Assembly (NCBI GenBank): GCA_030016635.1
Contig: JASEJQ010000006.1
Coordinates: forward strand, 1-64,000
Length of the DNA: 64,000 nucleotides
From: Thermoanaerobacteraceae bacterium
GTDB lineage: Bacteria; Bacillota; Thermoanaerobacteria; Thermoanaerobacterales; UBA4877
Reading direction: 5' to 3'
Position 1 is the stretch's first letter. Every line of letters begins with the position of its first letter. Positions 19,928 to 64,000 of the stretch are shown piece by piece. The notes below the pieces were generated by a model. It saw only the letters and a list, made by a program, of their open reading frames with translations. It did not search any database and was not told the DNA's origin. A program made the position numbers and the translations under genes.

Positions 19928-20899
19928 ATGAGAGAGATAACTTTTGCAGAAGCAACGCTGGAGGCTATGGCAGAAGAAATGGAAAGAGACCCACGAGTCT
20001 TTGTCATGGGTGAGGATATAGCAAGGCAGGGAGGTATTTTTGGTCAGTTTAAGGGCCTTCCACAGAAATTTGGTTATGATAGGGTGAGAGATACCCCGAT
20101 ATCTGAGACGACTATAGTCGGTTCGGGCGTTGGGGCAGCCTTAGCTGGCATGAGACCGGTTGTTGATATGCATTTTGTGGATTTTGTGGGTATCGCCATG
20201 GACGAGATATACAATCAGATGGCGAAGGTGAGGTATATGTTTGGCGGCCAGGCCACGGTCCCAGTGGTATTGAGAGCTCCGGATGGGATAACACAGTCAG
20301 CTGCAGCCCAGCATTCCCAGAGTTTAGAAGCGTGGTTTTTGCACGTGCCAGGGTTAAAGGTTGTAATACCATCCAATCCAGCCGATGCCAAGGGGCTGCT
20401 AAAGTCGGCAATAAGGGACGATAACCCTGTACTATATTTTGAAAACAAGGTTTTATACAGGCAGAAAGGTCCGGTTCCGGAGGATGAGTACCTTACACCT
20501 ATAGGCCAGGCCAACGTAGTAAAAGAGGGTAAAGATGTGACCATAGTGTCATATTCCATAACATTACAGAAATGCATAGAGGCAGCGAAAAGACTGGAAC
20601 AGGAGGGGATAAATGTAGAGGTAATTGATCTGAGGACTATTGTGCCTATGGACAAAGAGACAATCTATAACTCTGTGAAAAAGACCAAACATCTTGTAAT
20701 CGCCCATGAAGCAGTAAAGACCGGAGGAGTAGGAGCTGAAATAGCAGCCGCGGTTGCTGAGGATGTTATAGAATATCTGGATGGCCCTATCATGAGACTT
20801 GGTGGTAAGTTTACGCCCATACCTTTCAGCCCTGCTCTTGAAAAGATCTGGCCTCCTTCAGTGGAGGACATATATAGTGCAGTAAAACAAATAATTTAG
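19928..20899 (+). CDS. acoB: Acetoin dehydrogenase E1 beta subunit
   Basis: The 323-residue E1 beta partner forms the alpha2beta2 active site with AcoA. It shows the family run VFVMGEDIARQGGIFGQFKG, then TPISETTIVGSGVGAALAG, MHFVDFVGIAMDEIYNQ, and GAEIAAAVAEDVIEYLDGP near the C-terminal phosphate/E2-binding end. GGGGTGATATC precedes its ATG. Two GGCCAGGCC motifs (20246, 20504) are read as Gly-Gln-Ala. Confidence 0.88.
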   Translation: MREITFAEATLEAMAEEMERDPRVFVMGEDIARQGGIFGQFKGLPQKFGYDRVRDTPISETTIVGSGVGAALAGMRPVVDMHFVDFVGIAMDEIYNQMAKVRYMFGGQATVPVVLRAPDGITQSAAAQHSQSLEAWFLHVPGLKVVIPSNPADAKGLLKSAIRDDNPVLYFENKVLYRQKGPVPEDEYLTPIGQANVVKEGKDVTIVSYSITLQKCIEAAKRLEQEGINVEVIDLRTIVPMDKETIYNSVKKTKHLVIAHEAVKTGGVGAEIAAAVAEDVIEYLDGPIMRLGGKFTPIPFSPALEKIWPPSVEDIYSAVKQII

Positions 20900-32618: not shown

Positions 32619-34468
32619 TGGAGAGACGTCATGGAGGCCATGGTGGTGGGCCGTCTATGGCGAGGGCTGTAGAAAAGCCAAAGGACTTTTGGGGCAGTTT
32701 AAAAAGGCTCTTAGGATATTTAAAACCCTTTGCGGTACAGCTTGTCATAGTATTTGTCATGGCCGCCTTGAGTACCACATTTAATATATTGAGCCCAAGG
32801 GTTATAGGGATGGCCACCACAAAGCTTTTTGAAGGGTTTATGGAGAAGATGCGTCATATACCAGGTGCCGCCATAGATTTCCAGTATATATTGAATATAC
32901 TCATAATTTTGCTGGTACTGTATATCTTGAGTTCGCTCTTTGCTTATGCCCAGCAGTATATCATGGTGGGCATTTCTCAAAAGGTAGTCTTAAACATGAG
33001 GAAGGACATAATGCAAAAGCTCTCAAAACTTCCCCTGAGGTTTTATGACAGTAATTCCCATGGTGATGTCTTAAGTCGTGTGACCAATGATGTGGATAAC
33101 ATAAGCAATACACTACAGCAGAGCATAACACAGCTCATCACCGCAATTGTTACTCTTGTGGGTGTGATAATTATGATGCTTACCATAAGCCCTATCCTTA
33201 CACTTGTTACAGTAATAACGCTGCCGCTCAGCATAATAGCAACCGCTTCCATAGCATCACGTTCGCAGAAATATTTTGCGCGGCAACAGAAGGCCCTGGG
33301 AGAACTGAACGGCCATGTGGAAGAGATGTACGGTGGGCACAACATTGTCAAGGCATTCGGGCATGAGGGGGATGCAGTTAAAGAGTTTATAGAAATTAAT
33401 GATGAGCTATACAACGCCTCATGGAGGGCACAGTTCATGTCAGGCATTATAATGCCCCTAATGAATTTTATAAACAATATAGGATATGTCTTTGTATGTG
33501 CGGCTGGTGGGGTAATGGTGACGAGACAGAGTATAGTTATAGGGGATATCCAGGCGTTCATCCAGTATTCAAGACAGTTCACACAGCCCATAACCCAGAC
33601 AGCCAACATAGTGAATATAATACAGTCTACCCTTGCTTCCGCCGAGAGGGTGTTTCAGATACTGGATGAGCCTGAAGAGATCCCGGATAAAGAGAACGCA
33701 GCCACGATTGAAGATGCAAAGGGAGAAGTGGACTTTGAGCATGTCTATTTCAGCTACAACGAGGACGCTCCGCTGATTGAAGACCTAAACATAAGCGTCA
33801 AATCCGGACAGATGATTGCCATAGTTGGACCGACCGGCGCGGGCAAGACCACCCTTGTAAATCTCCTGATGAGGTTTTATGATGTGCAGAGGGGTAAAAT
33901 TATGGTGGATGGGGTAGACATAATGGATCTAAAGAAGGAAAACCTGCGCAGGATTTTTGGCATGGTCCTCCAGGATACATGGCTTTTTAAAGGGACGATA
34001 AGGGAAAATATAGCCTATGGGAAGGAAGGAGCTACCGAGGAGGAGATATTAAGAGCTGCTAAGGTGGCCAACGCCCATCACTTTATAAAAGCTCTTCCAG
34101 ATGGATACAACACGGTGCTCAATGAGGAGGCCTCAAATATTTCTCAGGGTGAGAAACAGCTTATCACCATTGCCAGGGCTGTACTTGCAGACCCCGACAT
34201 ATTGATACTGGATGAAGCGACGAGCAATGTGGATACGCTTACTGAGGTATATATACAGAAGGCTATGAAGAACCTCATGAGCGGCAGGACCAGCTTTGTC
34301 ATTGCCCACAGACTTTCTACTATAAGGAATGCGGATCTGATTCTTGTTATGAATAATGGTAAAATTATTGAGCAGGGGACACATGATGGACTCTTAAAGC
34401 AGGGCGGATTCTATGCTGACCTCTATAGGAGTCAGTTTTTAGGAGCCTTTGTGGAGGACGCTGTGTGA
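32615..34468 (+). CDS. ABC exporter half-transporter, partner subunit
   Basis: 617 residues with a glycine/histidine-rich N-terminus (MMERRHGGHGGGPSMA), six helices, and an ATPase with Walker A GPTGAGKTTLVN, canonical Walker B ILILDEATSNVD and His in IAHRLS. The signature is NISQGEKQLITIARA rather than LSGGQ. In the heterodimer this subunit supplies the working catalytic Glu. The substrate is unknown; TM288/BmrD-like proteins export many drugs. Confidence 0.9.
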   Translation: MMERRHGGHGGGPSMARAVEKPKDFWGSLKRLLGYLKPFAVQLVIVFVMAALSTTFNILSPRVIGMATTKLFEGFMEKMRHIPGAAIDFQYILNILIILLVLYILSSLFAYAQQYIMVGISQKVVLNMRKDIMQKLSKLPLRFYDSNSHGDVLSRVTNDVDNISNTLQQSITQLITAIVTLVGVIIMMLTISPILTLVTVITLPLSIIATASIASRSQKYFARQQKALGELNGHVEEMYGGHNIVKAFGHEGDAVKEFIEINDELYNASWRAQFMSGIIMPLMNFINNIGYVFVCAAGGVMVTRQSIVIGDIQAFIQYSRQFTQPITQTANIVNIIQSTLASAERVFQILDEPEEIPDKENAATIEDAKGEVDFEHVYFSYNEDAPLIEDLNISVKSGQMIAIVGPTGAGKTTLVNLLMRFYDVQRGKIMVDGVDIMDLKKENLRRIFGMVLQDTWLFKGTIRENIAYGKEGATEEEILRAAKVANAHHFIKALPDGYNTVLNEEASNISQGEKQLITIARAVLADPDILILDEATSNVDTLTEVYIQKAMKNLMSGRTSFVIAHRLSTIRNADLILVMNNGKIIEQGTHDGLLKQGGFYADLYRSQFLGAFVEDAV

Positions 34469-34876: not shown

Positions 34877-36655
34877 ATGAAAAAGAAAGTACCTGTATTT
34901 TTAGTGCTTTTACTGACAGCTGTGCTCATACTAACATCCTGCAGTTCATCAACTTCTGGTTCTGACCAGAACCAGCCGCAGCAACAGGCTCAGCAGCCGC
35001 CTGCTCAGGGTTCAGGCCCTGTGGATGTCTCTAAATCAGAGTCTTCGGTGGTAAAGCTTATAGAGGCTTCAAACCCTGCCAACCTACCGGCTGCAGCCAA
35101 GAACAGGCCGGATACCCTGATAGTGGGTACGACAGCCCCATCAGGAAAGTTTAACCCTATCTATGCAGACTCAGTATATGACTCATATGTTACAGAGCTT
35201 GTCTTTGATGGACTTTTGATGAACGACGAGAAGGGCAACCCGACGCCCAATGTGGCAGAGAGCTGGGATATATCAGAGGACGGCAAGACATATACATTCC
35301 ATTTGAAAAAGGGTATAAAGTTTACCAGTGGACAGGAGCTTACCGCAAAGGATGTGGAATTTACATACACAGCCATAGCAGACCCTAACTATGATGGCCC
35401 CAGGATGGATTCCGTGATGGACCTTGTGGGCTATGATGAGTATCATAACGACAAGGATGGCAAAGTGCCGAAGCTTGAAGGCATCAAGGTGATAGATGAC
35501 TATACCATCTCATTTACTCTCAAGGATGTAAAGGCTTCAGCACTAATAAGCGATTTTGGCTATGGGATTATGAGTAAAGACTACTATAACTTCGAGAAGG
35601 GCAACATACAGAAGCTCAAGGACCTTTTCTTAAAGCCTATGGGCTCCGGTGCATATGTATTTAAGGATTATAAGGCCGGGCAGGAGATAGACTTTGAGGC
35701 TAACCCAAATTACTGGAAGGGCGCCCCCAAGATAAAGAATATAGTCATGAAGGTTACCAATGCTGATACGGTCATACAGGAGCTTACCACGGGTGGAGTG
35801 GATGTGGATATAGTAGCGGCCAGGCCGGAGAACATTAAGATGCTACAGGACGCAGGATTTATAAACATCATACACTATCCGTCCAACAGCTATGGATACA
35901 TGGGATGGAACATGCGCCTTGATAAATTCAAGGACAAGAGAGTAAGACAGGCCCTCATGTATGGCCTCAACCGCCAGGGTTTCATTGATGCATACTATAA
36001 GGGATACGGCCAGGTCTGCAATGCACCTGTATCCTTAGTATCGTGGGCATACACCGATGACATCAACAAATACCCCTACGACCCGGACAAGGCAAATCAG
36101 CTCTTAGATGAGGCCGGATGGGTTAAGGGCAGTGATGGCTTCCGCTATAAAGACGGCGAAAAGTTTGTCATACACTGGATGACATACACAGGCAGTAAAT
36201 ATGTTGATACCCTCATACCGATAGTAAAGGACAACTGGGGTAAGCTGGGCATAGAGGTAGTGCCTGAGCTTATGGAGTTTTCAACCCTTTCCACAAAGGT
36301 ATACGACGAACAGAACTTTGAGCTATATAACATGGCATGGTCGCTCTCTATAGACCCCGACCCATCTGGAATATTCGCCATATCCCAGGACGTGAAGGGT
36401 GGATTTAACTCAGTAGGATGGAGAAATGATGAGAGTGAGAAACTCATTGAACAGGGCCTCAGAGAAACAGACCAGCAAAAGAGAAAGGAAATCTATCAGC
36501 AATGGATAAAACTGGCAAATGATGATCTTCCCTACCTGTTCTTGAGCTATTCCGATGATGCATATGGCATAAGCTCAAGAGTAAAGGGATTGAAGATAAC
36601 ACCATATGAGGATTGGACATATTACATCTATCAGGCTGAGCTGGTAAATCCATAG
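34877..36655 (+). CDS. Oligopeptide/dipeptide ABC transporter substrate-binding lipoprotein
   Basis: A 592-residue SBP family 5 protein with signal peptide and lipobox (LILTSCSSS, Cys near residue 22), a Q/P-rich linker, then the family signature: PTPNVAESWDISEDGKTYTF followed by HLKKGIKFTSGQELTAKDVE. NMRLDKFKDKRVRQALMYGL is the second conserved block. It binds peptides (or nickel, or sugars in some members) outside the membrane. It leads a five-gene operon with two permeases and two ATPases. A stem-loop follows its stop. Confidence 0.9.
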   Translation: MKKKVPVFLVLLLTAVLILTSCSSSTSGSDQNQPQQQAQQPPAQGSGPVDVSKSESSVVKLIEASNPANLPAAAKNRPDTLIVGTTAPSGKFNPIYADSVYDSYVTELVFDGLLMNDEKGNPTPNVAESWDISEDGKTYTFHLKKGIKFTSGQELTAKDVEFTYTAIADPNYDGPRMDSVMDLVGYDEYHNDKDGKVPKLEGIKVIDDYTISFTLKDVKASALISDFGYGIMSKDYYNFEKGNIQKLKDLFLKPMGSGAYVFKDYKAGQEIDFEANPNYWKGAPKIKNIVMKVTNADTVIQELTTGGVDVDIVAARPENIKMLQDAGFINIIHYPSNSYGYMGWNMRLDKFKDKRVRQALMYGLNRQGFIDAYYKGYGQVCNAPVSLVSWAYTDDINKYPYDPDKANQLLDEAGWVKGSDGFRYKDGEKFVIHWMTYTGSKYVDTLIPIVKDNWGKLGIEVVPELMEFSTLSTKVYDEQNFELYNMAWSLSIDPDPSGIFAISQDVKGGFNSVGWRNDESEKLIEQGLRETDQQKRKEIYQQWIKLANDDLPYLFLSYSDDAYGISSRVKGLKITPYEDWTYYIYQAELVNP

Positions 36656-51765: not shown

Positions 51766-51940
51766 TTTAGGTGTGAGAAGATGTTTTACGAATTCAAGAG
51801 TATCATAGGCTCGCTTTAAGGTTGCATTTGATGTTGCATATCATTCTCGACATGGTTCCCATAGTGGCATCACTTTGAATATATCTGTAGTTAGAATATA
51901 GTGACAAGGAATTTGCATGCACGTATGTGAGGTGTTTAAG

Positions 51941-52981
51941 ATGGCGGTAACCATAAAGGATGTGGCGGCACGGGCAGGGGTAAACCCCTCTACGGTATCC
52001 AGGGTGCTGGCCGAGAGCCCGCTGATAAGCGAGGAGACAAAGGAAAAGGTAAGGATGGCTATAAAGGAGCTGGGCTACCACCCCAATGCCATTGCACGCA
52101 GTTTAGCCATGAGCTCCAGCCGTACTATTGGCCTTGTCATATCCAGGCCAACAGAGCAGGCCTTTGCCAACCCATTTTTTCCAGAGGTCATAAGGGGCAT
52201 AGGCACTGTCCTGGAAAGGGAGGGCTACCACCTCATGCTGGAGATGGCCTCTGATGCAGAGTCGGAGGGAAGGACAACCCTCCAGATGTTAAAGAGTAGG
52301 AGGGTTGATGGGGTCATACTCACCAGTTCCAGGATTGGAGATAGCCTGATTTCAAGGCTCATAGGGGATGACCTGCCCTTTGTCCTCATAGGCAGGCCCA
52401 TTGGCAAGGAATACCAGGAGGTAGATCCCGTCCTCTGGGTGGACAATGACAATGTGCAGGTGGGATATGTAGCGACAGAGCACCTCATATTGAATGGAAG
52501 AAAGGACATTGCCATGGTAGACGGCCCCAAGGACCTGGTGGTTTCCTACGACAGGCTTTGCGGGTACAGGAAGGCCATGCATAGGTACGGCAGGGAAATA
52601 AGGGAAGAGTTTCTGATTAATGTCCCCTTTACAGAGGAGGGCGGGATTCAGGCGGCAGAGCATTTTATTAAGTCCGGTAGGATGCCCAATGCCATATTTG
52701 CGGCTGACGACAGCATCGCCTTAGGAGCTATAATGAGGCTTAAAGAACAGGGCATAACAGTACCCGACGATGTGGCTGTGGTTGGTGTAAACGACAGCCC
52801 CATAGGCAGGGTGGCCAGGCCGTCCCTCACCACAATGAGTGTTGAGATATTCGATATGGGTGTACGGGCGGCAGAAATGCTCATAGAGAGGATAAATGAC
52901 AGGGATACACCCTCCTACCATGTAGTCTTCCCTTCGGAGCTTATAGTGAGGGAGTCCAGTACGGCTTTAAAGGCAGAATAG
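51941..52981 (+). CDS. LacI family transcriptional regulator (maltose-type)
   Basis: 346 residues. The helix-turn-helix is MAVTIKDVAARAGVNPSTVS with RVLAESPLISEETKEKV after it, then a periplasmic-binding-like sensor (60-346) with IGLVISRPTEQAFANPFFPE and FAADDSIALGAIMRLKEQGI. ATG 51941 follows GTGAGGTG. It lies inside the maltodextrin block, so it probably represses these genes by binding the CG-centred dyads before the MalE-type gene. It carries one motif copy (52813, Ala-Arg-Pro). Confidence 0.9.
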   Translation: MAVTIKDVAARAGVNPSTVSRVLAESPLISEETKEKVRMAIKELGYHPNAIARSLAMSSSRTIGLVISRPTEQAFANPFFPEVIRGIGTVLEREGYHLMLEMASDAESEGRTTLQMLKSRRVDGVILTSSRIGDSLISRLIGDDLPFVLIGRPIGKEYQEVDPVLWVDNDNVQVGYVATEHLILNGRKDIAMVDGPKDLVVSYDRLCGYRKAMHRYGREIREEFLINVPFTEEGGIQAAEHFIKSGRMPNAIFAADDSIALGAIMRLKEQGITVPDDVAVVGVNDSPIGRVARPSLTTMSVEIFDMGVRAAEMLIERINDRDTPSYHVVFPSELIVRESSTALKAE

Positions 52982-52998
52982 TTGAGGAGGTTTGTTTA

Positions 52999-55278
52999 AT
53001 GCTTGGGAAGATTATCTCATATGATTGGACTGATAACAGTGTGGTACTTAATGGAAAAGGCTTTAATATCTATATTGACGTTTTGAGCAATAATATAGTA
53101 AATATTGCTGCCTCAAGGGGAGAGAGGCCGGCCCCCAGCCAGGCAGTGGTGATGAAAAGACAGAATGTCGAACTTCAGGTTGAGGAGAGTGATGGGTACA
53201 TCGACATCTCTACAGCCTCATTCAGGCTCAGGGTGTCCATAGAGGACAGCATTATGGAGATAGATGACGGCGATGGGTTTTTACTCAAGGACATTGAGCT
53301 AAACCTGAGTGATGACGATAGGTCATGCACTATAGATGTGAGGGAAGGGGAGCACTTCTATGGCCTGGGTGAAAAGACAGGCTTTCTGGATAAGAAGGGT
53401 TACAGGTACACAATGTGGAATACAGACTGCTATGACACCCATACCGAGGGCACGGATACCCTCTATGAGAGCTATCCCTTCTATATAGGGTTTAATCAGG
53501 AGGGCAGCTATGGCATATATTTCGACAACACATTCAGGACATACTTTGACATGGGTAAGAGCGACCCTGAGAGGGTAAGGTTTGGGGCAGAGCATGGCCC
53601 TATGGGTTTTTTCTTCATATATGGACGGGATATAAAGGACGTGGTAAAGGGCTACACAGAAGTGACAGGCAGGATGGATATGCCGCCGCTCTGGGCACTG
53701 GGCTACCAGCAGAGTAAATACAGCTATTACCCGCAGGATAGGGTTGTGGAGCTGGCGAAGTCATTCAGAGAGAAGGATATACCGGCCGATGTCATTTATC
53801 TGGATATTCACTACATGGATGGGTTCAGGGTATTTACCTTTGACAAGGAGAGGTTCCCCGATCCCAAAGCTATGATAGACGAGCTCGAGGAAATGGGCTT
53901 TAAGGTGGTCACCATCATAGACCCCGGGCTCAAGGCAGACGGATCTTACAGTGTATTTGCCGAAGGGATTAAAAACCACTATTTTGTGACTGACAAAGAT
54001 GGCCTTCCCTTTACCGGCAAGGTATGGCCTGGCCTCACCTGCCTGCCCGACTTTTCCAGGGACGATGTGAAGAGGTGGTGGGGTGACAACCATAAGGAGT
54101 TTATCGAAATAGGCATAGCGGGCATATGGAACGACATGAACGAGCCCGCAGTAATGGACACACCCACCAAGACCATGCCCGAGGATATGGTACACCAGAA
54201 TAATGGTAAACCCATCAGGCATGAGGAGTTTCACAACGTATATGCCCTCAACATGGCCATGGCCACAAAGGATGCCCTCTTGAGGTTCAGACCCAATGAG
54301 AGGACCTTCATCCTCACCAGGGCGGCCTTCTCAGGCATACAGAGGTATGCGGCCGTATGGACAGGGGACAACAGGAGCTACTGGGAACATCTGAAGATGT
54401 CCATGCCCATGCTTTTAAATATAGGTCTTTCGGGTGAGCCCTTCTGTGGTGCCGATATAGGCGGCTTTACTGACGACTGTAGCGAAGAGCTGCTTATAAG
54501 ATGGACACAGGTTGGTGTATTTTATCCCTTCTGCAGAAACCACAATGGCTTAGAGTCTAAGGACCAGGAACCGTGGGCCTTTGGCAGGAGGGCCGAGGAT
54601 ATAACCAGAGAGTTCATAAAGCTGCGATACAGACTTCTGCCATACATGTATAACCTGTTCTATGAGGCTAACACCACCGGCATACCGGTCATGAGGCCGC
54701 TTATAATGGAATATCCTGGCGACGAAATGTGTGCTGAGGTATTTGATGAATTCATGCTGGGTGAGAGCATACTGGTTGCACCAGTCTACGAACCCGGTAA
54801 GAGGGTCAAGGACGTCTACCTTCCGAAAGGCAGGTGGATTGCCTGGTGGACAGGAGAGGAGTATCAGGGAGGCAGGTACTACCTTGTAGATGCCCCGCTG
54901 GATAGGATGCCTATCTTTATAAAGGCTGGGGCGGTCCTCCCGATGGCCAGGCCTATGAAAAGTACATCAGACGGCATGGTTACGGAGTTTCATATCTTCC
55001 CCGGCACTATGTCGGGCGAATATGTTTACTACGAGGACGACTGCCGTACATTAAACTACATGAATGGAGAGTATAACCTCTACAGGATAAGCTACAGCAA
55101 AGGTGCAGAGGCTGCTGACATAAAGGTAGAAAAGCTATATTATGGGTATAGCGAAGGCCAGAGGCAGTTCCAGGTTGTATTAAGAGGAGAAAAGAATATC
55201 GAAAAGGTCCGGGTAAACGGCCAGGCCGCTGAGCCGGTTGCCAGAGACGGAGATGTAATAGTAGATATGACAGTATAG
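52999..55278 (+). CDS. GH31 alpha-glucosidase
   Basis: A 759-residue glycoside hydrolase family 31 enzyme. The N-terminal beta domain includes EHFYGLGEKTGFLDKKG, the barrel has the nucleophile Asp in GIWNDMNEPAVMD and the acid/base region AAVWTGDNRSYWEHL. Other family marks are DVIYLDIHYMDGFRVFTFD and PFCRNHNGLESKDQEPW. No signal peptide, so it would release glucose from short dextrins in the cytoplasm. GGAGG before the ATG; 17 bp after the LacI gene. Three motif copies (54026, 54945, 55219), each in a different reading frame. Confidence 0.92.
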   Translation: MLGKIISYDWTDNSVVLNGKGFNIYIDVLSNNIVNIAASRGERPAPSQAVVMKRQNVELQVEESDGYIDISTASFRLRVSIEDSIMEIDDGDGFLLKDIELNLSDDDRSCTIDVREGEHFYGLGEKTGFLDKKGYRYTMWNTDCYDTHTEGTDTLYESYPFYIGFNQEGSYGIYFDNTFRTYFDMGKSDPERVRFGAEHGPMGFFFIYGRDIKDVVKGYTEVTGRMDMPPLWALGYQQSKYSYYPQDRVVELAKSFREKDIPADVIYLDIHYMDGFRVFTFDKERFPDPKAMIDELEEMGFKVVTIIDPGLKADGSYSVFAEGIKNHYFVTDKDGLPFTGKVWPGLTCLPDFSRDDVKRWWGDNHKEFIEIGIAGIWNDMNEPAVMDTPTKTMPEDMVHQNNGKPIRHEEFHNVYALNMAMATKDALLRFRPNERTFILTRAAFSGIQRYAAVWTGDNRSYWEHLKMSMPMLLNIGLSGEPFCGADIGGFTDDCSEELLIRWTQVGVFYPFCRNHNGLESKDQEPWAFGRRAEDITREFIKLRYRLLPYMYNLFYEANTTGIPVMRPLIMEYPGDEMCAEVFDEFMLGESILVAPVYEPGKRVKDVYLPKGRWIAWWTGEEYQGGRYYLVDAPLDRMPIFIKAGAVLPMARPMKSTSDGMVTEFHIFPGTMSGEYVYYEDDCRTLNYMNGEYNLYRISYSKGAEAADIKVEKLYYGYSEGQRQFQVVLRGEKNIEKVRVNGQAAEPVARDGDVIVDMTV

Positions 55279-55281
55279 CTT

Positions 55282-55302
55282 TAGCGCTCCAGATGGGGCG
55301 CT
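55282..55302. repeat. 21-bp hairpin repeat, copy 1
   Basis: TAGCGCTCCAGATGGGGCGC plus T, with AGCGCTCC pairing GGGGCGCT around an AGAT loop, then TTAATTTTTT. It serves as terminator of the GH31 gene and is identical to 57835-57855. Confidence 0.8.
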
Positions 55303-55324
55303 TAATTTTTTGGTTTATATTAAA

Positions 55325-56269
55325 TCATTTCCTAAATACAAATAAGGCTTTATAGTTTGTGACAAGTATTTCATTTATAGAACCTCTGCGGCTGCTATTG
55401 GAATTTATCATACGTTTGGCCTGTATTCGGTGGATATAATAGTTTCTGTAAAGTTCATCAAAGAATTCGTCATTTGGGTTTTCGTTTTTGGGGTCGGAGT
55501 TGCTGAGCATAATCTTAGCGCCTCTTTCATCAAGTCTTTCAAAAAATTCTGCAAGTGCTATTTGTTCTCGATCATCAAAATCAGATTTATTATATGATGT
55601 AAAGTTTGATGTATCATTAAGAGGCCTGTAGGGTGGGTCAAGGTAGACAAAAGTATTGTTTTCGACGTATTTTATACTTTCCCTGTAATCAGCCTCGAAG
55701 ATTTTAACTCTTTGCAGCAAAGCATGGGCTGCATACAAATTATCCTCATCGCATATCGTGGGTTTTTTATAACGTCCTGCTGGTACGTTGAAAAGTCCCT
55801 GCTGGTTTACCCTGTATAGCCCGTTGTAGCATGTTCTGTTTAGAAAGATGAATAATGCTGCCTTTTCGATGTCTGGCCTGGCCTCATCTATTGGGGTCAA
55901 GTTATAAACAGACCTTATCCTATAATACATTTTTTCACGTTCTTCAAAGGTGCTTTTTAAATATTCTGCCTCGAGCATTTTGAGTTTATATATCAGCTCG
56001 TCAACACAATATTTGACAGCATTGTATGAATTTATAAGGTCCTTATTTATATCAAATATGTATGCTTCTTCTATGTTGTATTTTTGCATAATATCAAATA
56101 AAACGGCACCACTGCCGACAAATGGTTCTACATATCTCTTAACATTTCCGTTGACTAACTCTTCTGGATAAAATTTCAGAAATGTAGTAAGCAGCTGACT
56201 CTTCCCACCAGCCCATTTTACGAAAGGCCTGGCCGGTATATCAGTTCTTAAATTCACTATAGCTTCCAT
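55325..56269 (-). CDS. DNA adenine methylase, D12 class (Dam-like)
   Basis: A 314-residue N6-adenine methyltransferase of the DpnM/Dam type. The SAM motif is PFVKWAGGKSQLLTTFLKF near residue 16, motif VEPFVGSGAVLFDIMQKY, the catalytic FVYLDPPYRPLNDTSNFTSY, and the C-terminal SSRRGSINEILVTNY. It probably methylates GATC or a similar site. It sits convergent to the GH31 gene and divergent from a BREX relic; no restriction enzyme gene is adjacent, so it may be a solitary methylase. A deleted paralog is at 4159-4388. Two motif copies (55875, 56226). Confidence 0.92.
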   Translation of the reverse strand: MEAIVNLRTDIPARPFVKWAGGKSQLLTTFLKFYPEELVNGNVKRYVEPFVGSGAVLFDIMQKYNIEEAYIFDINKDLINSYNAVKYCVDELIYKLKMLEAEYLKSTFEEREKMYYRIRSVYNLTPIDEARPDIEKAALFIFLNRTCYNGLYRVNQQGLFNVPAGRYKKPTICDEDNLYAAHALLQRVKIFEADYRESIKYVENNTFVYLDPPYRPLNDTSNFTSYNKSDFDDREQIALAEFFERLDERGAKIMLSNSDPKNENPNDEFFDELYRNYYIHRIQAKRMINSNSSRRGSINEILVTNYKALFVFRK

Positions 56270-56363
56270 TGGTGCATACCCCCATATGTCCCTTAATTAT
56301 TTTTATTATACCATAATTTCAGAAATGAGCGGGGTATTATATACTGTAACCTGTGATGATAGT

Positions 56364-56386
56364 GCGCCTTACTGGAGGGCGCTCAA
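56364..56386. repeat. Divergent third copy of the GGGCGCTCAA hairpin
   Basis: GTGCGCCTTACTGGAGGGCG followed by CTCAA. Right arm GGGCGCTCAA matches the 57835-57855 copy and its flank, while the left arm and loop differ; GCGCC pairs with GGGCGC. Confidence 0.45.
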
Positions 56387-56540
56387 TTTATTTATTATCA
56401 ACAACGTGTCACATCCTTTTAAAAAAATGGAGGAATTTTATATAATTTGTAGAAATATTAAACTAATAATCACGTCTTTTGATGGATACATGACACACCG
56501 TGACAGAATGGTGGTTTAAAATATAAGGGGATGGTTTGAT

Positions 56541-57020
56541 TTGGATATTGAAGAAGAAATAATGGAGTTACTGGATGATCGGGATAACTCGTATTATCGC
56601 TTGATAATCATTGTAGGCGCAGGCGGCTCTGGAAAGACGGATATTTTAAAATCCATTGCTGACCAGTGTGGGACATATGTCAACCTGGGCCTGGCCCTAT
56701 CCGAGAAGCTCCTGGAGTATCCTATAGAGGAGAGGGCATATAAGGCCACAGACTGTCTCAGGGAGATATTAAACAGCATAGAGAAGGAACCGCTCCTGAT
56801 AGATAATATTGAGCTGCTCTTTGCCCCACACCTCAAGTTAAATCCCTTGAGCCTTTTGAAGCATGAGAGCAGATACAGAAAGATTGTTGCGGCCTGGCCT
56901 GGCCGATTTGAAAACGACAAACTCATATATGCCGAGTACGGCCATCCGGAATACAGGACATACGGCAAGAATGGCATTGAGGTACCCATATTAGACTTAG
57001 AGAGGAGACAAATCCAATGA
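56541..57020 (+). CDS. brxF: BREX-3 P-loop protein BrxF
   Basis: A 159-residue P-loop ATPase: Walker A VGAGGSGKTDILKSIAD, Walker B-like PLLIDNIELLFAP, and the C-terminal VAAWPGRFENDKLIYAEYGH and PEYRTYGKNGIEVPIL. These match the BrxF family of type 3 BREX phage-exclusion systems. The start is TTG after AAGGGGATGG. Its stop overlaps the start of a truncated BrxC-like frame by 4 bp, the normal brxF-brxC arrangement, but the rest of the system is lost. Three motif copies occur within this short gene (56688, and the overlapping 56891 and 56896). Confidence 0.85.
   Translation: MDIEEEIMELLDDRDNSYYRLIIIVGAGGSGKTDILKSIADQCGTYVNLGLALSEKLLEYPIEERAYKATDCLREILNSIEKEPLLIDNIELLFAPHLKLNPLSLLKHESRYRKIVAAWPGRFENDKLIYAEYGHPEYRTYGKNGIEVPILDLERRQIQ
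56891..56904. repeat. Overlapping tandem pair of GGCCTGGCC
   Basis: Two copies of GGCCTGGCC in the same orientation overlap by four bases, giving GGCCTGGCCTGGCC and encoding Ala-Trp-Pro-Gly-Arg in BrxF. Confidence 0.9.
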
Positions 57021-57118
57021 AATACAGCGAACTCATCCATTTTGAACCCATAGAGACGGTAACCCAATTAAAGAGCGCCGATGACTATAGAGTTAAGCAG
57101 AATTTTTCCGCTTCTTGA
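57017..57118 (+). pseudogene. Truncated BrxC N-terminus (BREX ATPase)
   Basis: ATG 57017 overlaps the brxF stop and reads MKYSELIHFEPIETVTQLKS then ADD, the start expected of BREX BrxC ATPases (over 1,100 residues). After ADDY the frame turns into unrelated residues and stops at 57118. A large deletion has removed the P-loop and everything after. Confidence 0.6.
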
Positions 57119-57329
57119 CAGTAGAGTTATAAGATCGTTAAATCCCTCTCTATTAACGTTGCTTTATGATGTGTATTCCAGATATAACGGGAAAAAGATG
57201 ACCGCAGACGAAACATTGGACTTTATTATCTCTGAGGTATTTAACCTGAGCATAGATAAGATAAAGGGTGTTGAGGATTTGATTTCTGCTTTGCTTAACC
57301 TTATGGGTAAATGTGCCAGAATCCCATAG
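57081..57329 (+). pseudogene. Fragment resembling a PglZ-type BREX protein
   Basis: An 82-residue frame reads IFPLLDSRVIRSLNPSLLTL, then LYDVYSRYNGKKMTADETLD and FIISEVFNLSIDKIKGVEDL. From memory this resembles the N-terminal third of type 3 BREX PglZ proteins (pattern of DFVLRHVF-like segments). There is no ribosome site and it stops at a second junction (GKCARIP). The gene order expected in a type 3 system is brxF-brxC-pglXI-brxHII-pglZ-brxA, so a PglZ remnant would fit here. Identity is tentative. Confidence 0.35.
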
Positions 57330-57837
57330 ATTTATTCGTGATAAGGGGATTGAGCTCTATAATGTATCTGATATTGAAAAGAAAGTAATATTACATTGGA
57401 GCGCTTTAATGATGGCTTATCCAATTTTTACTGATATTGCGTCTATAGCAGGCAGATTTTTATACCTGCATGAAGCATTTCAAGTTTCATCCGTCACTAA
57501 AAGAATATATGAACTGTGGGGGGAAAGAGATACAGTAAAATATGCCACAGAAAAGATTATTTCAACAATGTCTGATATGGGAGTAATATCCCATGGTGAA
57601 AAACCTGGCGAGTATAAAAGAGGGAGGCGCATTGTAGTTAATGACCCAGAGTATAAGCTGTTTCTCGTCAATTCCTTTATGCTTGCCACTAATAAAAAGA
57701 CGCTCCAATATGACACGATAGAAGACCAGTACCCGCTTTTCCCATTTAAAATAGACCTTGCAGTACATGAGGTAAACGAATCAGAAACGGTGAGCCTAAA
57801 CAGGTTTGACAATCAGACATTTGTTGTAATGAAGTAG
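57313..57837 (+). pseudogene. BrxA-like (DUF1819) C-terminal portion
   Basis: 174 residues in a new frame, including LHWSALMMAYPIFTDIASIA, GRFLYLHEAFQVSSVTKRIY and ELWGERDTVKYATEKIISTM, the winged-helix pattern expected of BrxA-type proteins. It is the last gene of type 3 BREX operons, consistent with its place. It may be N-terminally truncated by the junction near 57310, and its ATG has no ribosome site. A 21-bp hairpin overlaps its stop codon. Confidence 0.45.
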
Positions 57838-57855
57838 CGCTCCAGATGGGGCGCT
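57835..57855. repeat. 21-bp hairpin repeat, copy 2
   Basis: Identical over 21 bp to 55282-55302; here it overlaps the stop codon of the BrxA-like frame. The two copies bracket the Dam/BREX block of about 2.5 kb. Confidence 0.8.
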
Positions 57856-57980
57856 CAAATTATTTCTAAAAAAATTTTTATAAAAAAGAAGGATTTTTAA
57901 ATTGGATGTAGAATATATATAACATAAACATAGAAAAGGTTTACTATAGAATTTCATAATGGCAGCATAAGAGGTGCTAA

Positions 57981-58991
57981 ATGGATAAGGTTACTATAAA
58001 AGAGGTTGCAAAAAAGGCAAACGTTTCAATAGCCACTGTTTCAAGGGTATTGAACAATAATTATCCTGTAAGCGAGGATGTAAGGCTTAAGGTATTAGAG
58101 GCGATAAGTGAACTAAATTATCAGCCCAATGGAGTGGCCAGGAGTTTAAAGAGTAAAAGGACGCATATGATAGGCATTGTTGTCGCTGATATAACAAACC
58201 CATACTTTATGCAGATTGCCAAGGGCGTTGAAAGTGTCGTAAGCAGTAAAGGATATAACCTCATATTTTGCAGTACAAATGAAAACCCAACGAAGGAACT
58301 AAAACTCTTAAGACTCCTAAATGAAAAGAGAGTTGATGCCATAGTTCTTGCCACGTGTGATAAAGACGGTTCCTATATTAAACAACTGATAGAACATGGT
58401 ACCCCGGTGATAATGGTGGATAGAAAGATACATGGGCTTAACGCAGATACAATCGTTGAAGACAACTTTAATGCTGCATATAACATAACCAATTACTTAA
58501 TAAATAAGGGGCATAAAAAGATATCTGTAGTAAACGGTTTACTAAGCATAAGCACCGGCAAGGAGAGGTTTGAAGGATTTAAAAAAGCGTTGGAAGACAA
58601 TGGCATACTGCTTATTGAGAAGTACGTTTTAAAGGGCAACTTTAACAGAGAAGATGCTTATAACGCAGTCAAGAATATGATTAAAGAACAAAGAGAAGAC
58701 CTGCCAACAGCTATTTTTGCAGCAAATAACCTCATGGCAGAGGGTGCAATGATAGCAATATATGAACAGGGTTTAAGAATACCAGAAGATATATCTATTG
58801 TCTCATTTGGTGATTTAAGTGTGCCGCAGCTGATAAAGCCCAAACTCACGCTAATCTCTCAAAATGCCTATGTCATAGGACAAAAGGCGGGAGAAATAGC
58901 ATTAGAAAAGATCAATGGTGAGAAAGATAACTATAGGGAGTATGTAATGGTTCCTGATTTACGTGTTGGGGAGTCTGTAAAGCAAGTATAG
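57981..58991 (+). CDS. LacI family transcriptional regulator
   Basis: 336 residues: helix-turn-helix VTIKEVAKKANVSIATVSRV, hinge NYQPNGVARSLKSKRT, and sensor domain with IGIVVADITNPYFMQIAKGV and FAANNLMAEGAMIAIYEQGL. It lies directly before the lyase/TTT cluster, where a matching CG-centred dyad is seen, so it should regulate that cluster in response to a sugar acid or similar ligand. Composition is visibly more AT-rich than the maltodextrin genes. Confidence 0.9.
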   Translation: MDKVTIKEVAKKANVSIATVSRVLNNNYPVSEDVRLKVLEAISELNYQPNGVARSLKSKRTHMIGIVVADITNPYFMQIAKGVESVVSSKGYNLIFCSTNENPTKELKLLRLLNEKRVDAIVLATCDKDGSYIKQLIEHGTPVIMVDRKIHGLNADTIVEDNFNAAYNITNYLINKGHKKISVVNGLLSISTGKERFEGFKKALEDNGILLIEKYVLKGNFNREDAYNAVKNMIKEQREDLPTAIFAANNLMAEGAMIAIYEQGLRIPEDISIVSFGDLSVPQLIKPKLTLISQNAYVIGQKAGEIALEKINGEKDNYREYVMVPDLRVGESVKQV

Positions 58992-59014
58992 GAAGGAATT
59001 GTAATTTATATATT

Positions 59015-59030
59015 TAGTAATCGTTTACTA
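59015..59030 (+). promoter_or_regulatory. LacI-type operator before the lyase/TTT cluster
   Basis: TAGTAATCGTTTACTA is a dyad about CG with 14 of 16 symmetric bases, 45 bp before ATG 59075 and 24 bp after the LacI gene. A half-site TTTACTATA also precedes the LacI gene near 57940, so it may autoregulate. Confidence 0.6.
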
Positions 59031-59074
59031 TATTGTTTTATTGATTTAATTTTTAAATATATAGGAGGGATAAA

Positions 59075-59950
59075 ATGGATAAAGAAAGATTTAAAGGCAT
59101 TATTGCACCTGTGGTCACTCCATTCACAGCCGAAGGCACGATTGATGAAGATTTATTTAGAAAGGAGGTCAAATATTTATTAAATACGGGTATTGATGGG
59201 ATTAGTCCCGGAGGAAGTACAGGCGAAGGAGCTACTTTAAGTGACAATGAATTAGTTAGGTTAGTTCAAATTATTCAAGAAGAAAACACTAAGCGTATTC
59301 CAGTTGTATGCGGAATAATTAGAAATTCGACATATGCTGCTATAAATGCAGGAATGGCTGTTAAAGAAGCTGGCGCTGATGCTCTTATGATAACTCCAAC
59401 ATTTTATTTAGGCGGTACAGACGAAGCTGGTAATTATGAGTATTATAAGAAAATAGCAGAATCTGTAGGTCTACCAATAATTATATATAATGTAATCGCA
59501 GACAATGAAATTAAACCAAAACATTTTAAAAAAATATTGGAAATTGAAAATGTAATAGGGATAAAGCAAAGTGTTGGTGGAATTCAGGGTTTTTTGGATA
59601 TGAAGATGTCATGCGGAGATAGAGGGCTTATTTATAGTGCAACAGATGATATGTTATATATGACATTTGATATGGGTGCTGATGGTGCAATTGCAGCAAT
59701 ATTATCAGTATTTCCCGAACTATGTGTAAAAATGTGGCGAACAATAAAGGAGGGTGATAACAAAACTGCGAAAGAAATACACAATAAGCTTTATCCTATT
59801 TGGAGTGTTATAAAGGGTCCACAGTTCCAAAGAAGGGTAAAGGCGGCAATAAATTTACAGGGACGCAATGCTGGTTTGCCTCGTCATCCATTGCTGGAAG
59901 CGACTGAACATGAATTGACCATGTTGAAAGATTTAATATCAAAACTTTAG
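59075..59950 (+). CDS. DapA-family lyase/aldolase (first copy)
   Basis: The 291-residue class I aldolase-like protein has the DHDPS/NAL fold: VVTPFTAEGTIDEDLFRKEV, GGSTGEGATLSDNELVRL, IIIYNVIADNEI with the proton-relay Tyr, and NVIGIKQSVGGIQGF with the Schiff-base Lys. GGSTGEG instead of the GTTGE of true DapA, and the transporter context, suggest a catabolic keto-acid aldolase or dehydratase rather than lysine synthesis. AGGAGGG before the ATG. Confidence 0.85.
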   Translation: MDKERFKGIIAPVVTPFTAEGTIDEDLFRKEVKYLLNTGIDGISPGGSTGEGATLSDNELVRLVQIIQEENTKRIPVVCGIIRNSTYAAINAGMAVKEAGADALMITPTFYLGGTDEAGNYEYYKKIAESVGLPIIIYNVIADNEIKPKHFKKILEIENVIGIKQSVGGIQGFLDMKMSCGDRGLIYSATDDMLYMTFDMGADGAIAAILSVFPELCVKMWRTIKEGDNKTAKEIHNKLYPIWSVIKGPQFQRRVKAAINLQGRNAGLPRHPLLEATEHELTMLKDLISKL

Positions 59951-59968
59951 GATAAAAGGAGGATAAAA

Positions 59969-60961
59969 ATGTTAAAAAAAGTTAGTATTTTTGCATTGAT
60001 AGCGATATTAATAATTGGGTTAACAGCATGTGGCAGTAATTCTACAAATCAGCAGCCTCAGCAGCAAGCTGAAAAGTTCCCAAATAAACCAATTACATTA
60101 GTTGTACCGTGGGCAGCAGGCGGTGGGACTGATGCAGTGGCCAGGGCATTAGCACAGAATGGAGAAAAATATTTAGGTGTACCTGTTGTTGTTGAGGATA
60201 AACCAGGTGGTTCTGGTGCAGTAGGTCTGGGTGAAGTAAAAGCAGCGAAACCCGATGGCTATACTTTGGCTATACTACCCGTTGAACTTGGTTTCCTGGA
60301 TAAACAGGGAATTTATCCATTCTCTTTTGATGATTTTACTATGATAATGAATTTAAACAGCGATCCAGCTGCATTAACAGTTAAAGCAGATGCTCCATGG
60401 AATAGTGTTGATGATTTTGTTAAATATGCTAAAGAAAATCCAGGGAAAATAAAAATAGGAAATTCAGGAACCGGTGTTTTATGGCACCTTGCGGCAGCTC
60501 TATTTGCTCAAAAAACAGGAATAGAAGTAACCCATGTGCCATTTGACGGTGCTGCGCCAGCAATGGCTGCTTTACTTGGTGGACAGATTGATGCAGTAAC
60601 TGTGAGTGGCGCAGAGGTTTCGGCACAGGTAAAGGCTGGGGAATTAAAAGTTTTGGGTGTGATGGGCGATAATAGATTGGACATTTATCCTGATGTTCCT
60701 ACGATGAAGGAACAAGGTGTGGATGCAGTTATATACACATTCAGAGGTCTTGGGGGACCTAATGGGATACCAGAAGATAGAGTAAAAATTTTACATGACG
60801 GATTTAAAAAGATGATGGAAGACCCATCTTTTATTGAAACTATGAACAAAATGGGCTTGGGGATCGATTATAGAGGCCCAGAAGATTATAAAAAATTAGC
60901 AGAGGATACAGCGAATGAACTGGAACCTGTTTTGAAAGATTTAGGTTTATATAAAGAATGA
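59969..60961 (+). CDS. Tripartite tricarboxylate transporter binding lipoprotein (TctC/Bug)
   Basis: 330 residues: signal peptide and lipobox LIIGLTACGSN, then the Bug/TctC fold with KPITLVVPWAAGGGTDAVAR, VVVEDKPGGSGAVGLGEVKA, LAALFAQKTGIEVTHVPFDG, and MAALLGGQIDAV. It captures a carboxylate outside the cell for the TctAB membrane pair downstream. AGGAGG before the ATG. A strong hairpin follows its stop. Confidence 0.92.
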   Translation: MLKKVSIFALIAILIIGLTACGSNSTNQQPQQQAEKFPNKPITLVVPWAAGGGTDAVARALAQNGEKYLGVPVVVEDKPGGSGAVGLGEVKAAKPDGYTLAILPVELGFLDKQGIYPFSFDDFTMIMNLNSDPAALTVKADAPWNSVDDFVKYAKENPGKIKIGNSGTGVLWHLAAALFAQKTGIEVTHVPFDGAAPAMAALLGGQIDAVTVSGAEVSAQVKAGELKVLGVMGDNRLDIYPDVPTMKEQGVDAVIYTFRGLGGPNGIPEDRVKILHDGFKKMMEDPSFIETMNKMGLGIDYRGPEDYKKLAEDTANELEPVLKDLGLYKE

Positions 60962-60971
60962 CGCTAGTATT

Positions 60972-61014
60972 TATATGTGAGATAGATGGCTTTTAGCTGT
61001 CTATCCCACATATA
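60972..61014 (+). other. Intercistronic stem-loop after TctC
   Basis: TATATGTG (60972-60979) and GATAGA (60981-60986) pair with TCTATC (61000-61005) and CACATATA (61007-61014), a 14-bp stem with one internal mismatch. No T run follows, so it likely favours high TctC expression. Confidence 0.7.
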
Positions 61015-61037
61015 GAACATATAAGGGAGGTTTATCC

Positions 61038-61499
61038 GTGGAATCTAAAAATAAAGGTAATTATGATTTAATAATTGGGGGCATAGGATTACTTGTATGT
61101 ATAATTGTTTATTTGCTGACTAATAATTATCCCTCTCCTCACGTTGGATATATTAGCGCAGCGACATTTCCCAGGCTATTAAGTACTTTAATTGGCGTAC
61201 TGGGAGTGGTTTTGATGATCCAATCAATATATACGAAAAATAATATTAAGATTCAATTCAAAAATAGTAAAATAGTTATAACTGTAATTATCGCATTAAT
61301 TCTGTATGCACTAACAATTAAATATATAGGATTTGAAATTACTACAGTGTGTTTCATATTTTTTACATTATATTTATTGGGAATTAAAAAATTATCATAC
61401 CTTATTTTTACTCCGATTATTACTACTTTGTTAATACAGTATATATTTAAAAACATTTTAGGGGTAGCTTTACCAGTAGGTATATTTTCTATTATTTGA
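61038..61499 (+). CDS. TctB family small permease
   Basis: 153 residues with four hydrophobic segments, as in TctB: IIGGIGLLVCIIVYLLTNNY, then PHVGYISAATFPRLLSTLIG and two more C-terminal helices. GTG start after GGGAGG. It partners TctA. Confidence 0.83.
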   Translation: MESKNKGNYDLIIGGIGLLVCIIVYLLTNNYPSPHVGYISAATFPRLLSTLIGVLGVVLMIQSIYTKNNIKIQFKNSKIVITVIIALILYALTIKYIGFEITTVCFIFFTLYLLGIKKLSYLIFTPIITTLLIQYIFKNILGVALPVGIFSII

Positions 61500-61526
61500 T
61501 TGACTCCGAAAAGGCGGTGATTTAGT

Positions 61527-63008
61527 TTGCTCAGTTTGTTATTTGAAGGTTTTTATAATCTTTTTACTGGTGGCGGTGCCCCAATGTTGTTGCTTGGCAT
61601 GATAGTTGGCACGATAATTGGAGCTTTGCCGGGCCTTACAGCTACAATGGGAATCGCTCTATTGATACCATTTACTTACGTGCTGCCGCCAGCCTCTGGC
61701 TTATCGCTTCTCATAGGAATTTTCGCTGGTGGAATATATGGAGGTTCAATATCTGCTATTTTATTAAATACACCGGGAACTCCTGCTGGTGGTGCTACTG
61801 TTTTAGATGGTTATCCTCTTGCACAAAAGGGGCAGGCGGGCAAGGCACTTGCTGTCTCCACTATTGCTAGTGCCTTGGGAGGTACAATAGGTGCGTTAAT
61901 TTTGACATTTTTGGCACCGCAGATTGCCAAAATAGCTTTAATGTTTGGACCGCCAGAATATGTATTGTTAGCAATATACGGTCTGACAATGATTTCATTT
62001 GTATCAGGTAAATCACTAATAAAAGGCTATTTTTCGGGATTATTTGGTCTTTTAATTGCTACAATCGGACTTGATCCTATTAATGGCTACCCTAGATTTA
62101 CCTTTGGAAATTTAAATTTATTAAATGGAATAAACTTACTTCCAGTTTTAATAGGGTTGTTTGCCGTAACACAAGCATTAGAGTGCGCGGAAACATATGA
62201 TGAAGAAAGACCAGCTCAGGCTGCCATAAAAAGTATAGGGATAACTTTAAGAGAATTTATCAGTATTTTACCCACCATTATAAAATCAGCATTTATTGGA
62301 ACATTTGTGGGTGCAGTGCCTGGAACCGGTACGGATATTGCTGCTTTTTTAGCATATGGAGAAGCAAAAAGATCGTCCAAACATCCGGAAAAATTTGGGA
62401 CAGGTATAATTGAGGGTATAGCCGCACCAGAGTCGTCAAATAATGCATGTGTTAATGGCGCCATGATCCCTATGTTTACTTTGGGTATACCCGGTGAAGC
62501 TGCAACGGCCGTGATGTTAGGAGGTTTGATGGTTTTAGGTTTACAGCCAGGGCCATTGCTTTTTAGGGATAATCCACAAATTATTTACACTGTGTTTGCA
62601 AGTACAATAACTTCCAACATATTTATGTTAATATTGGGCTTATTGGGTATTAGGTTGTTTGCCAAAGTCTTATCCTTACCTAAAAATGTAATTACCACAT
62701 TGATTTTTGTTCTAGCCATTATAGGCTCGTATTCGATGAGAAATAATTTATTTGATATATGGATAACTATTATTTTTGGTATTTTAGGCTACTTTATGAA
62801 TAAATATCAGTATCCAATACCACCTGTACTTTTAGGAATAATTTTGGGCCCAATGGTTGAATCAAACCTTGGTAGAGCACTTTTGATTTCACATGGAAGT
62901 TATACGGTGTTTTTTACAAGGCCAATATCTGTATTCTTTATTGTTATAATAGTCTTTAGCCTTGTTTCCGCCTATAGAAGTTCGAAGAAGGAAGTAAATA
63001 ATATTTAA
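61527..63008 (+). CDS. TctA family large permease
   Basis: 493 residues with the TctA signature GALPGLTATMGIALLIPFTY and LIGIFAGGIYGGSISAILLN then TPGTPAGGA; the second repeat has FVGAVPGTGTDIAAFLAYG and TLGIPGEAATAVMLGGLMV. This is the main membrane channel of the tripartite system. TTG start with AGGCGG upstream. Confidence 0.92.
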   Translation: MLSLLFEGFYNLFTGGGAPMLLLGMIVGTIIGALPGLTATMGIALLIPFTYVLPPASGLSLLIGIFAGGIYGGSISAILLNTPGTPAGGATVLDGYPLAQKGQAGKALAVSTIASALGGTIGALILTFLAPQIAKIALMFGPPEYVLLAIYGLTMISFVSGKSLIKGYFSGLFGLLIATIGLDPINGYPRFTFGNLNLLNGINLLPVLIGLFAVTQALECAETYDEERPAQAAIKSIGITLREFISILPTIIKSAFIGTFVGAVPGTGTDIAAFLAYGEAKRSSKHPEKFGTGIIEGIAAPESSNNACVNGAMIPMFTLGIPGEAATAVMLGGLMVLGLQPGPLLFRDNPQIIYTVFASTITSNIFMLILGLLGIRLFAKVLSLPKNVITTLIFVLAIIGSYSMRNNLFDIWITIIFGILGYFMNKYQYPIPPVLLGIILGPMVESNLGRALLISHGSYTVFFTRPISVFFIVIIVFSLVSAYRSSKKEVNNI

Positions 63009-63044
63009 TTTATAAATCTTTTAAAAAAAGGAGAGGAGATAAAA

Positions 63045-63953
63045 ATGAATAAATTTGGTAGGGTTTTATTGCCTTTGGTTACTCCATTTGATGAAAATGA
63101 AGAGGTGAATTATGACGTATTTAAAGAGTTAATTGAATATGTTATTCAAAAGGATTACTGTGACACGATAGTTGTTACAGGCACTACTGGAGAATTTAAT
63201 ACTTTAAAATTTGATGAAAGAGCAAAACTTTACGAAACAGCAGTGAAGGAGGTTAACAGGAGAAAACCAATCATTGCAGGAACAGGCTGCGGTTCTACAA
63301 AAGAGACGATTGAACTAACAAAGGTTGCAGCTGATTCAGGTGTAGATGCTTGTATGCTTGTAGGTCCATATTATTGTAAGCCAACTCAAGAAGCAATATA
63401 TGAACATTATAAAAGAATAGCAGACAGTGTTGATATAGACTTATTATTGTATAATATTCCTGTTTTTACGGGAGTAAATATAGAACCTGAAACCGTAGGC
63501 AGATTAGCTCAGGATAAGAAATTTATTGGGATTAAAGATGAAGCTGGCATGAATCCAATACAGGTTACAGACTATTATTATGCAACAAAAGATGTCAACA
63601 ACGAATTTTTAATATTTAATGGTGATGATTTAATGCTTATGCCTACCTTAGCTCAAGGGGCAGTTGGTATAGTAAGTGGTGGTTCTCATCTTGTTGGTGA
63701 TAAAGTCAAACTGGTTTTTGAAAAGTATCATGAGGGAAAGGTTGATGAAGCATTAGAAATTTATAGGCAGATATTTAAGCTATTTAGGATATTTGGGATA
63801 AACGGTAGGGTCCATCCCAATCCAATGCTTAGAGTTGCTATAGAGACGGTAACTGGTATTAAAGTTGGAAAGCCAAGAATGCCTTTGAATGGAATAACTG
63901 AGGGTGAGAAAGTAGCATTAAACAACGTACTGAGGGAATTAAATTTAATATAA
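63045..63953 (+). CDS. DapA-family lyase/aldolase (second copy)
   Basis: 302 residues: LLPLVTPFDENEEVNYDVFK, VVTGTTGEFNTLKFDERAKL (GTTGE as in DapA), LLLYNIPVFTGVNIEPETVG with the Tyr, and KKFIGIKDEAGMNPIQ with the Schiff-base Lys. It shares the fold but little sequence with the copy at 59075, so they are not recent duplicates; they probably act on successive or alternative keto-acids. GGAGAGGAG before the ATG. Confidence 0.87.
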   Translation: MNKFGRVLLPLVTPFDENEEVNYDVFKELIEYVIQKDYCDTIVVTGTTGEFNTLKFDERAKLYETAVKEVNRRKPIIAGTGCGSTKETIELTKVAADSGVDACMLVGPYYCKPTQEAIYEHYKRIADSVDIDLLLYNIPVFTGVNIEPETVGRLAQDKKFIGIKDEAGMNPIQVTDYYYATKDVNNEFLIFNGDDLMLMPTLAQGAVGIVSGGSHLVGDKVKLVFEKYHEGKVDEALEIYRQIFKLFRIFGINGRVHPNPMLRVAIETVTGIKVGKPRMPLNGITEGEKVALNNVLRELNLI

Positions 63954-63983
63954 ATTTAACATTATCAGTTGGAGTTGATTAAA

Positions 63984-64000
63984 ATGGATATAACTGAAAG
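63984..64000 (+). CDS. Start of a further gene (truncated by window end)
   Basis: TTGGAGTTG at 63970-63978 is a weak ribosome site for ATG 63984; only MDITE is visible. Probably the next gene of the lyase/TTT cluster. Confidence 0.4.

What the first reader, a model, noticed from the sequence alone, without database searches (positions are those of the whole stretch)
56541..57837. Collapsed type 3 BREX defence system
BrxF looks complete, its stop overlaps a correct BrxC start, but BrxC breaks off after about 23 residues. A possible PglZ fragment and a BrxA-like piece follow in different frames. This is the gene order of type 3 BREX (brxF, brxC, pglXI, brxHII, pglZ, brxA) with about 10 kb removed by at least two deletions. 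A conserved brxF left over could be inert or have a residual role.
Basis: partly seen in the sequence, partly recalled or inferred. Interest (0 to 1): 0.62.

Follow-up and report, generated by a model that had tools for sequence, protein, structure and literature searches.

The report
Recently collapsed type 3 BREX remnant
A bacterial anti-phage system (type 3 BREX) has been reduced to one whole small gene and three stumps, and a near relative that carries the intact system at the same chromosomal site shows exactly where the pieces were cut, so this is an ordinary, well-documented defence-gene relic.

Summary
Profiles identify a full-length BrxF (56541-57020), the first 23 codons of BrxC (57017-57085), PglZ residues 103-176 of 626 (57086-57305) and BrxA from about residue 63 to its end (57303-57837), each in a different frame. 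A same-family relative (G001) holds a BREX-3 operon open in every gene at the same site, between the same dam-type methylase and the same right flank. Aligning the two places the joins at 57085/57086 (12.85 kb missing, no microhomology) and 57303-57305 (1.54 kb missing, 3-base microhomology). No other BrxC, PglZ or PglX was found in the genome. Seven further genomes of the order carry the multi-gene operon; none has the short form. The island is 98-99% identical between the two genomes (backbone about 90%), so the collapse is recent. But brxA' is only 75% identical (dS about 1.5, dN/dS 0.15), so that stump belongs to another BREX-3 allele, and the second join may be a recombination joint, not a simple deletion. 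Another genome of the order keeps only a broken brxF, which favours an inert relic. Biological interest is low.

The parts
55325..56269 (-). dam-family DNA adenine methyltransferase, intact; left neighbour of the BREX locus in both genomes (island neighbour, not a BREX gene)
   Evidence: TIGR00571 291 bits, PF02086 4e-62; 99.4% aa identity and dS 0.016 to the copy in G001
56541..57020 (+). brxF, full length, 159 aa, Walker A (GAGGSGKT) kept
   Evidence: NF033453 E 2e-50, PADLOC BrxF 1.6e-54; 96% aa identity to the copy in the open G001 operon
57017..57085 (+). brxC 5' stump: 23 codons, followed in frame by 10 unrelated residues and a stop
   Evidence: PDLC02482 positions 1-26 E 9e-7; identical to the G001 brxC start up to 57085
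57085..57086 (.). junction 1: brxC codon 23 joined to pglZ codon 103; 12,850 bp of the G001 operon missing; no microhomology
   Evidence: blastn pieces 56416-57085 = G001 20060-20729 and 57086-57305 = G001 33580-33799; junction check
57086..57305 (+). pglZ internal fragment, residues 103-176 of 626; the rest of the protein, including the C-terminal half, is gone
   Evidence: NF033449 positions 95-175 E 6e-16; 98.2% DNA identity to G001 pglZ
57303..57305 (.). junction 2: ATG shared by pglZ (G001 33797-33799) and brxA (G001 35334-35336); 1,537 bp missing relative to G001
57306..57837 (+). brxA 3' part, residues from about 64 to the stop, still open; divergent allele (68% aa and 75% DNA to G001)
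   Evidence: PDLC02437 positions 63-235 E 4e-52; alignment; dS 1.51, dN/dS 0.15
57838..57882 (+). terminator-like tail of the operon, still alignable to the sequence after G001 brxA
   Evidence: blastn 57341-57882 = G001 35372-35913; sequence
57883..64000 (+). LacI-DHDPS-TctC/B/A-DHDPS catabolic and transport cassette that in G000 sits between the BREX relic and the shared right flank (continues to C81 66329); not a BREX gene
   Evidence: Pfam; absent from G001; right edge at C81 66330 = G001 36915

Best explanation
This is a recently inactivated type 3 BREX operon. The ancestor had brxF-brxC-pglX-brxH-pglZ-brxA at this site, as the same-family relative G001 still does. One break removed everything from codon 24 of brxC to codon 102 of pglZ. 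A second break joined pglZ codon 176 to brxA near codon 63. The methyltransferase, helicase and scaffold ATPase are gone, and so are most of PglZ and the BrxA N-terminus, so no BREX modification or restriction can work. BrxF is probably still made but has no partners and is inert. Shown: piece identities, frames, junctions, the open operon at the same site, absence of further BrxC, PglZ and PglX copies in the draft genome. Inferred: loss of function, order of events, inertness of BrxF.
For: Profile hits for all four pieces. All BREX genes open at the same site in G001 with the same neighbours on both sides. Clean junctions with 0 and 3 bases of microhomology. No other BrxC, PglZ or PglX in the genome. 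Five other genomes of the order keep the canonical six-gene order and two more keep it without brxH or with brxC in two frames; none has the short form. A second relic, two brxF fragments with stops and no other BREX gene, exists in G021 of the same order.
Against: brxA' is 75% identical to the G001 copy while the rest of the island is 98-99%, which a plain two-deletion history from a G001-like operon does not explain. A BrxHII search of the own genome was not run. The genome is a 114-contig draft, so a second BREX locus in a gap cannot be fully excluded.
Confidence: 0.95

Rival explanations
1. Replacement instead of a second deletion: DNA from a different BREX-3-bearing strain (carrying brxA' and probably the LacI-DHDPS-Tct cassette behind it) replaced the pglZ 3' part, the old brxA and the sequence behind it. 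The left end joined illegitimately at the ATG microhomology, the right end by homology in the shared right flank. This is a variant of the best explanation (the locus is still a collapsed BREX-3), not an alternative to it.
For: The 75% patch starts exactly at junction 2 and is followed by the 8.4-kb cassette absent from G001, while both flanks of the patch are 98-99% identical. brxA dS 1.51 with dN/dS 0.15 means the allele diverged long before, mostly as a working gene. Such joins are known as homology-facilitated illegitimate recombination (term found in PMC6382021 by search; paper not read).
Against: No donor found in the class, nor in 399 sampled genomes of the phylum. The same data fit an older homologous swap of brxA followed by an ordinary deletion.
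Confidence: 0.35
2. BrxF survives as a functional stand-alone protein, for example a DNA or nucleotide sensor or a regulator of the neighbouring genes.
For: Its frame, Walker A motif and upstream region are intact.
Against: Collapse is recent (pglZ' 98% and brxC' 100% identical to G001), so an open frame says nothing about selection. brxF differs from G001 by 7 nonsynonymous changes, 6 of them in a 12-SNP cluster at 56556-56648. The comparable relic in G021 has a broken brxF.
Confidence: 0.05
3. Assembly artefact: a misjoin of reads from an intact operon.
For: Draft genome in 114 contigs.
Against: Both joins are inside a 66-kb contig, no repeat is present at junction 1, the fragments keep operon order, and the removed brxC and pglX are not on any other contig.
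Confidence: 0.02

Closest known systems
Type 3 BREX (brxF-brxC-pglXI-brxHII-pglZ-brxA)
   Same: All four surviving pieces belong to it and keep its order; the open operon at the same site in G001 is of this type
   Different: pglXI and brxHII are absent here; brxC, pglZ and brxA are stumps; only brxF is whole
BREX-3 operon of G001 (same family, same chromosomal site)
   Same: 98-99% DNA identity over brxF, brxC', pglZ' and the near flanks
   Different: G001 is open in all genes and carries a second brxC; its brxA is a different allele (75%); G001 has 2.2 kb extra in front of brxF and an IS fragment in place of the LacI cassette
Decayed brxF relic in G021 (same order)
   Same: BREX-3 reduced to brxF with the other genes gone
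   Different: brxF itself is broken into two pieces with stops; no brxC, pglZ or brxA stump found

Membership tests
Type 3 BREX | BrxF present | tested here: met
   NF033453 170 bits over a cut-off of 50
Type 3 BREX | BrxC (DUF6079) complete | tested here: not met
   only 23 codons left; no other copy in the genome
Type 3 BREX | PglXI methyltransferase present | tested here: not met
   no match in the own genome to the G001 PglX, which matches at about 48-75% in seven other genomes of the order
Type 3 BREX | BrxHII helicase present | tested here: not met
   absent from the locus; the rest of the genome was not searched for it
Type 3 BREX | complete PglZ | tested here: not met
   residues 103-176 of 626 only; no other copy in the genome
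Type 3 BREX | complete BrxA | tested here: not met
   first 62 or so residues missing
Remnant of type 3 BREX | fragments in operon order at the site where a relative has the open operon | tested here: met
Remnant of type 3 BREX | short form not conserved elsewhere | tested here: met
   not seen in 24 genomes of the order, 37 of the class or 399 sampled of the phylum

The most novel reading that the evidence does not exclude
The collapsed form is kept for a reason: a lone BrxF (an AAA+/STAND-like protein with an intact Walker A) acts without the rest of BREX, for example as a sensor, a dominant-negative guard against an incoming BREX-3 system, or a regulator of its neighbours.
Probability: 0.04. 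Interest if true: 0.5.

Novelty: new member of a known kind. Interest (0 to 1): 0.22.

Why it matters
Loss of defence systems is common, but the joins and the intact parent are seldom seen together. Here a parent operon at the same site with about 1-2% divergence lets both joins be read to the base, shows the loss is recent, and shows that the end of the operon had a different allelic origin. It is a tidy case study of turnover in a defence island, not a new system. It also warns annotation pipelines that a complete brxF hit does not mean a working BREX.

Tried and rejected
Direct search of 85,000 species genomes with the window BrxA alone found nothing. With an alignment it found only distant relatives at 32-41%. 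No donor of brxA' plus the LacI cassette turned up in the class or of brxA' in 399 sampled genomes of the phylum. Plasmids gave two weak BrxA hits at 21-26% and phages gave no BrxF hit, so there is no sign of a mobile element as carrier. Rfam gave nothing around the locus. The BrxA profile (A1) matched no solved structure by sequence. The founding BREX paper (Goldfarb 2015, PMC4337064) is not held. Structure prediction was not used, since the pieces are identified by sequence.

Full report
Identity of the pieces. The window ORF 56541-57020 is a full BrxF (NF033453, 170 bits against a cut-off of 50; PADLOC BrxF 1.6e-54). Its stop overlaps an ATG at 57017 that opens a 33-residue frame. The first 23 codons are those of BrxC (PADLOC BrxC positions 1-26, E 9e-7; DUF6079 positions 1-29, E 1.7e-5), and the last ten residues are foreign. 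The next frame, 57081-57329, is the inside of PglZ (NF033449 positions 95-175 of 642, E 6e-16). The next, 57313-57837, is BrxA without its N-terminus (positions 63-235 of 238, E 4e-52). The three stumps lie in three different frames, so both joins shift the frame.

The parent at the same site. The only other genome held from the same family, G001, encodes BrxF at 96% amino-acid identity, followed by brxC, pglX, a second brxC, brxH, pglZ and brxA, all open; all but the second brxC were confirmed by PADLOC profiles, the second brxC by its 34% identity to the first over full length. The left flank of the window (51852-56445, with a glycosidase and a dam-type methylase) is colinear with G001. The right flank of G001 is found at the end of the window's contig (C81 66330-66361) and on contig C95. 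The locus is therefore the same.

The joins. Window 56416-57085 equals G001 20060-20729 and window 57086-57305 equals G001 33580-33799. The first join drops 12,850 bp with no microhomology. The second join uses an ATG common to pglZ (33797-33799) and brxA (35334-35336) and drops 1,537 bp. Left over are 23 of 1219 BrxC residues, PglZ residues 103-176 of 626, and BrxA from about residue 63. The own genome has no further BrxC, PglZ or PglX, so the lost part was not moved and the joins are unlikely to be assembly errors. BrxHII was not searched genome-wide.

Is the short form conserved elsewhere? In the order, 10 of 24 genomes have a BrxF match. Five (G003, G006, G008, G015, G023) hold the full canonical set in order. 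G013 lacks brxH, G017 has brxC in two frames, and G001 has the doubled brxC. G021 has only two brxF fragments with stops and nothing else of BREX. None has the window's short form. The literature describes type 3 BREX as six core components, with BrxF as a homologue of the BrxB AAA+/STAND protein (PMC12839542, PMC10164562), so the remaining pieces cannot make a working system. That last step is inference.

Age and mosaic. Divergence between G000 and G001 is roughly 2-18% per 250 bases over much of the left backbone (88-91% identity over 36.7-50.5 kb), falls to about 1% from about 54.5 kb, and stays at 1-2% over the methylase, brxF, brxC' and pglZ', and at 0.7% over C95. The dS values are 0.19 for the glycosidase, 0.016 for the methylase, 0.06 for brxF, 0.02 for pglZ' and 1.51 for brxA'. 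The island was therefore shared recently and the collapse is more recent still. brxA' is an exception: 75% DNA identity, dN/dS 0.15, so it diverged mostly as a functional gene and is a different allele. It is nonetheless the nearest relative of G001 brxA (68% aa, against at most 41% for all others). Two histories fit: an older homologous swap of brxA followed by a deletion, or a single replacement with an illegitimate left end at the ATG and a homologous right end, which would also have brought in the LacI-DHDPS-Tct cassette. I could not find a donor.

Function. The most likely state is inert. BrxF is open, but with a collapse this recent that proves nothing. A 12-SNP cluster at 56556-56648 carries all but one of its amino-acid changes from G001, which looks like a short conversion tract.

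Taxon. The window's own genus is unnamed in the tools; from memory Caldanaerobius would fit, untested.

Noticed in passing
L004:16922-20000 and L005:1-530 (G001 C6 26921-30529): The BREX-3 operon of G001 carries a second, full-length BrxC-like gene (1202 aa, 34% identical to the first, Walker A kept) between pglX and brxH. It was seen in no other operon of the order.
   Followed up: partly
L054:92-973 against G001 C6 37042/37041: Opposite decay in the shared island: G000 keeps an 882-bp ORF (no family hit; in the usual restriction-enzyme slot) in front of an N6/N4 methylase, while G001 has lost about 809 bp of it and keeps only the methylase.
   Followed up: partly
L004:7840-10060 (G001 C6 17839-20059): G001 has 2.2 kb in front of brxF that the window lacks, bounded by a near-identical direct repeat of about 30 bases, holding a type III-D cas7 fragment, a DUF4160-DUF2442 pair and a transposase-like ORF. 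The window copy is a left/right hybrid of the repeat, as expected of a repeat-mediated deletion.
   Followed up: partly
window:57857-57939: A roughly 60-base A+T-rich element (AAGAAGGATTTTT-N7-ATGTAGAATATATATAA) in front of the LacI gene matches many places in nearly every genome of the class, with a possible weaker copy in front of brxF near 56430. No Rfam match; perhaps a class-wide promoter or leader element.
   Followed up: partly
window:56556-56648: 12 of the 13 differences between the two brxF genes lie within 93 bases, like a gene-conversion tract from a third allele.
   Followed up: partly
window:56598-56640: BrxF here and in Thermoanaerobacter keeps a canonical Walker A motif (GxxGSGKT), although a recent survey groups type 3 BrxF with inactive STAND proteins (PMC12839542).
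   Followed up: no
L025 (G021 C1 998668-998999): Another BREX-3 relic: two brxF fragments with stops and no other BREX gene within the 20 kb looked at.
   Followed up: yes
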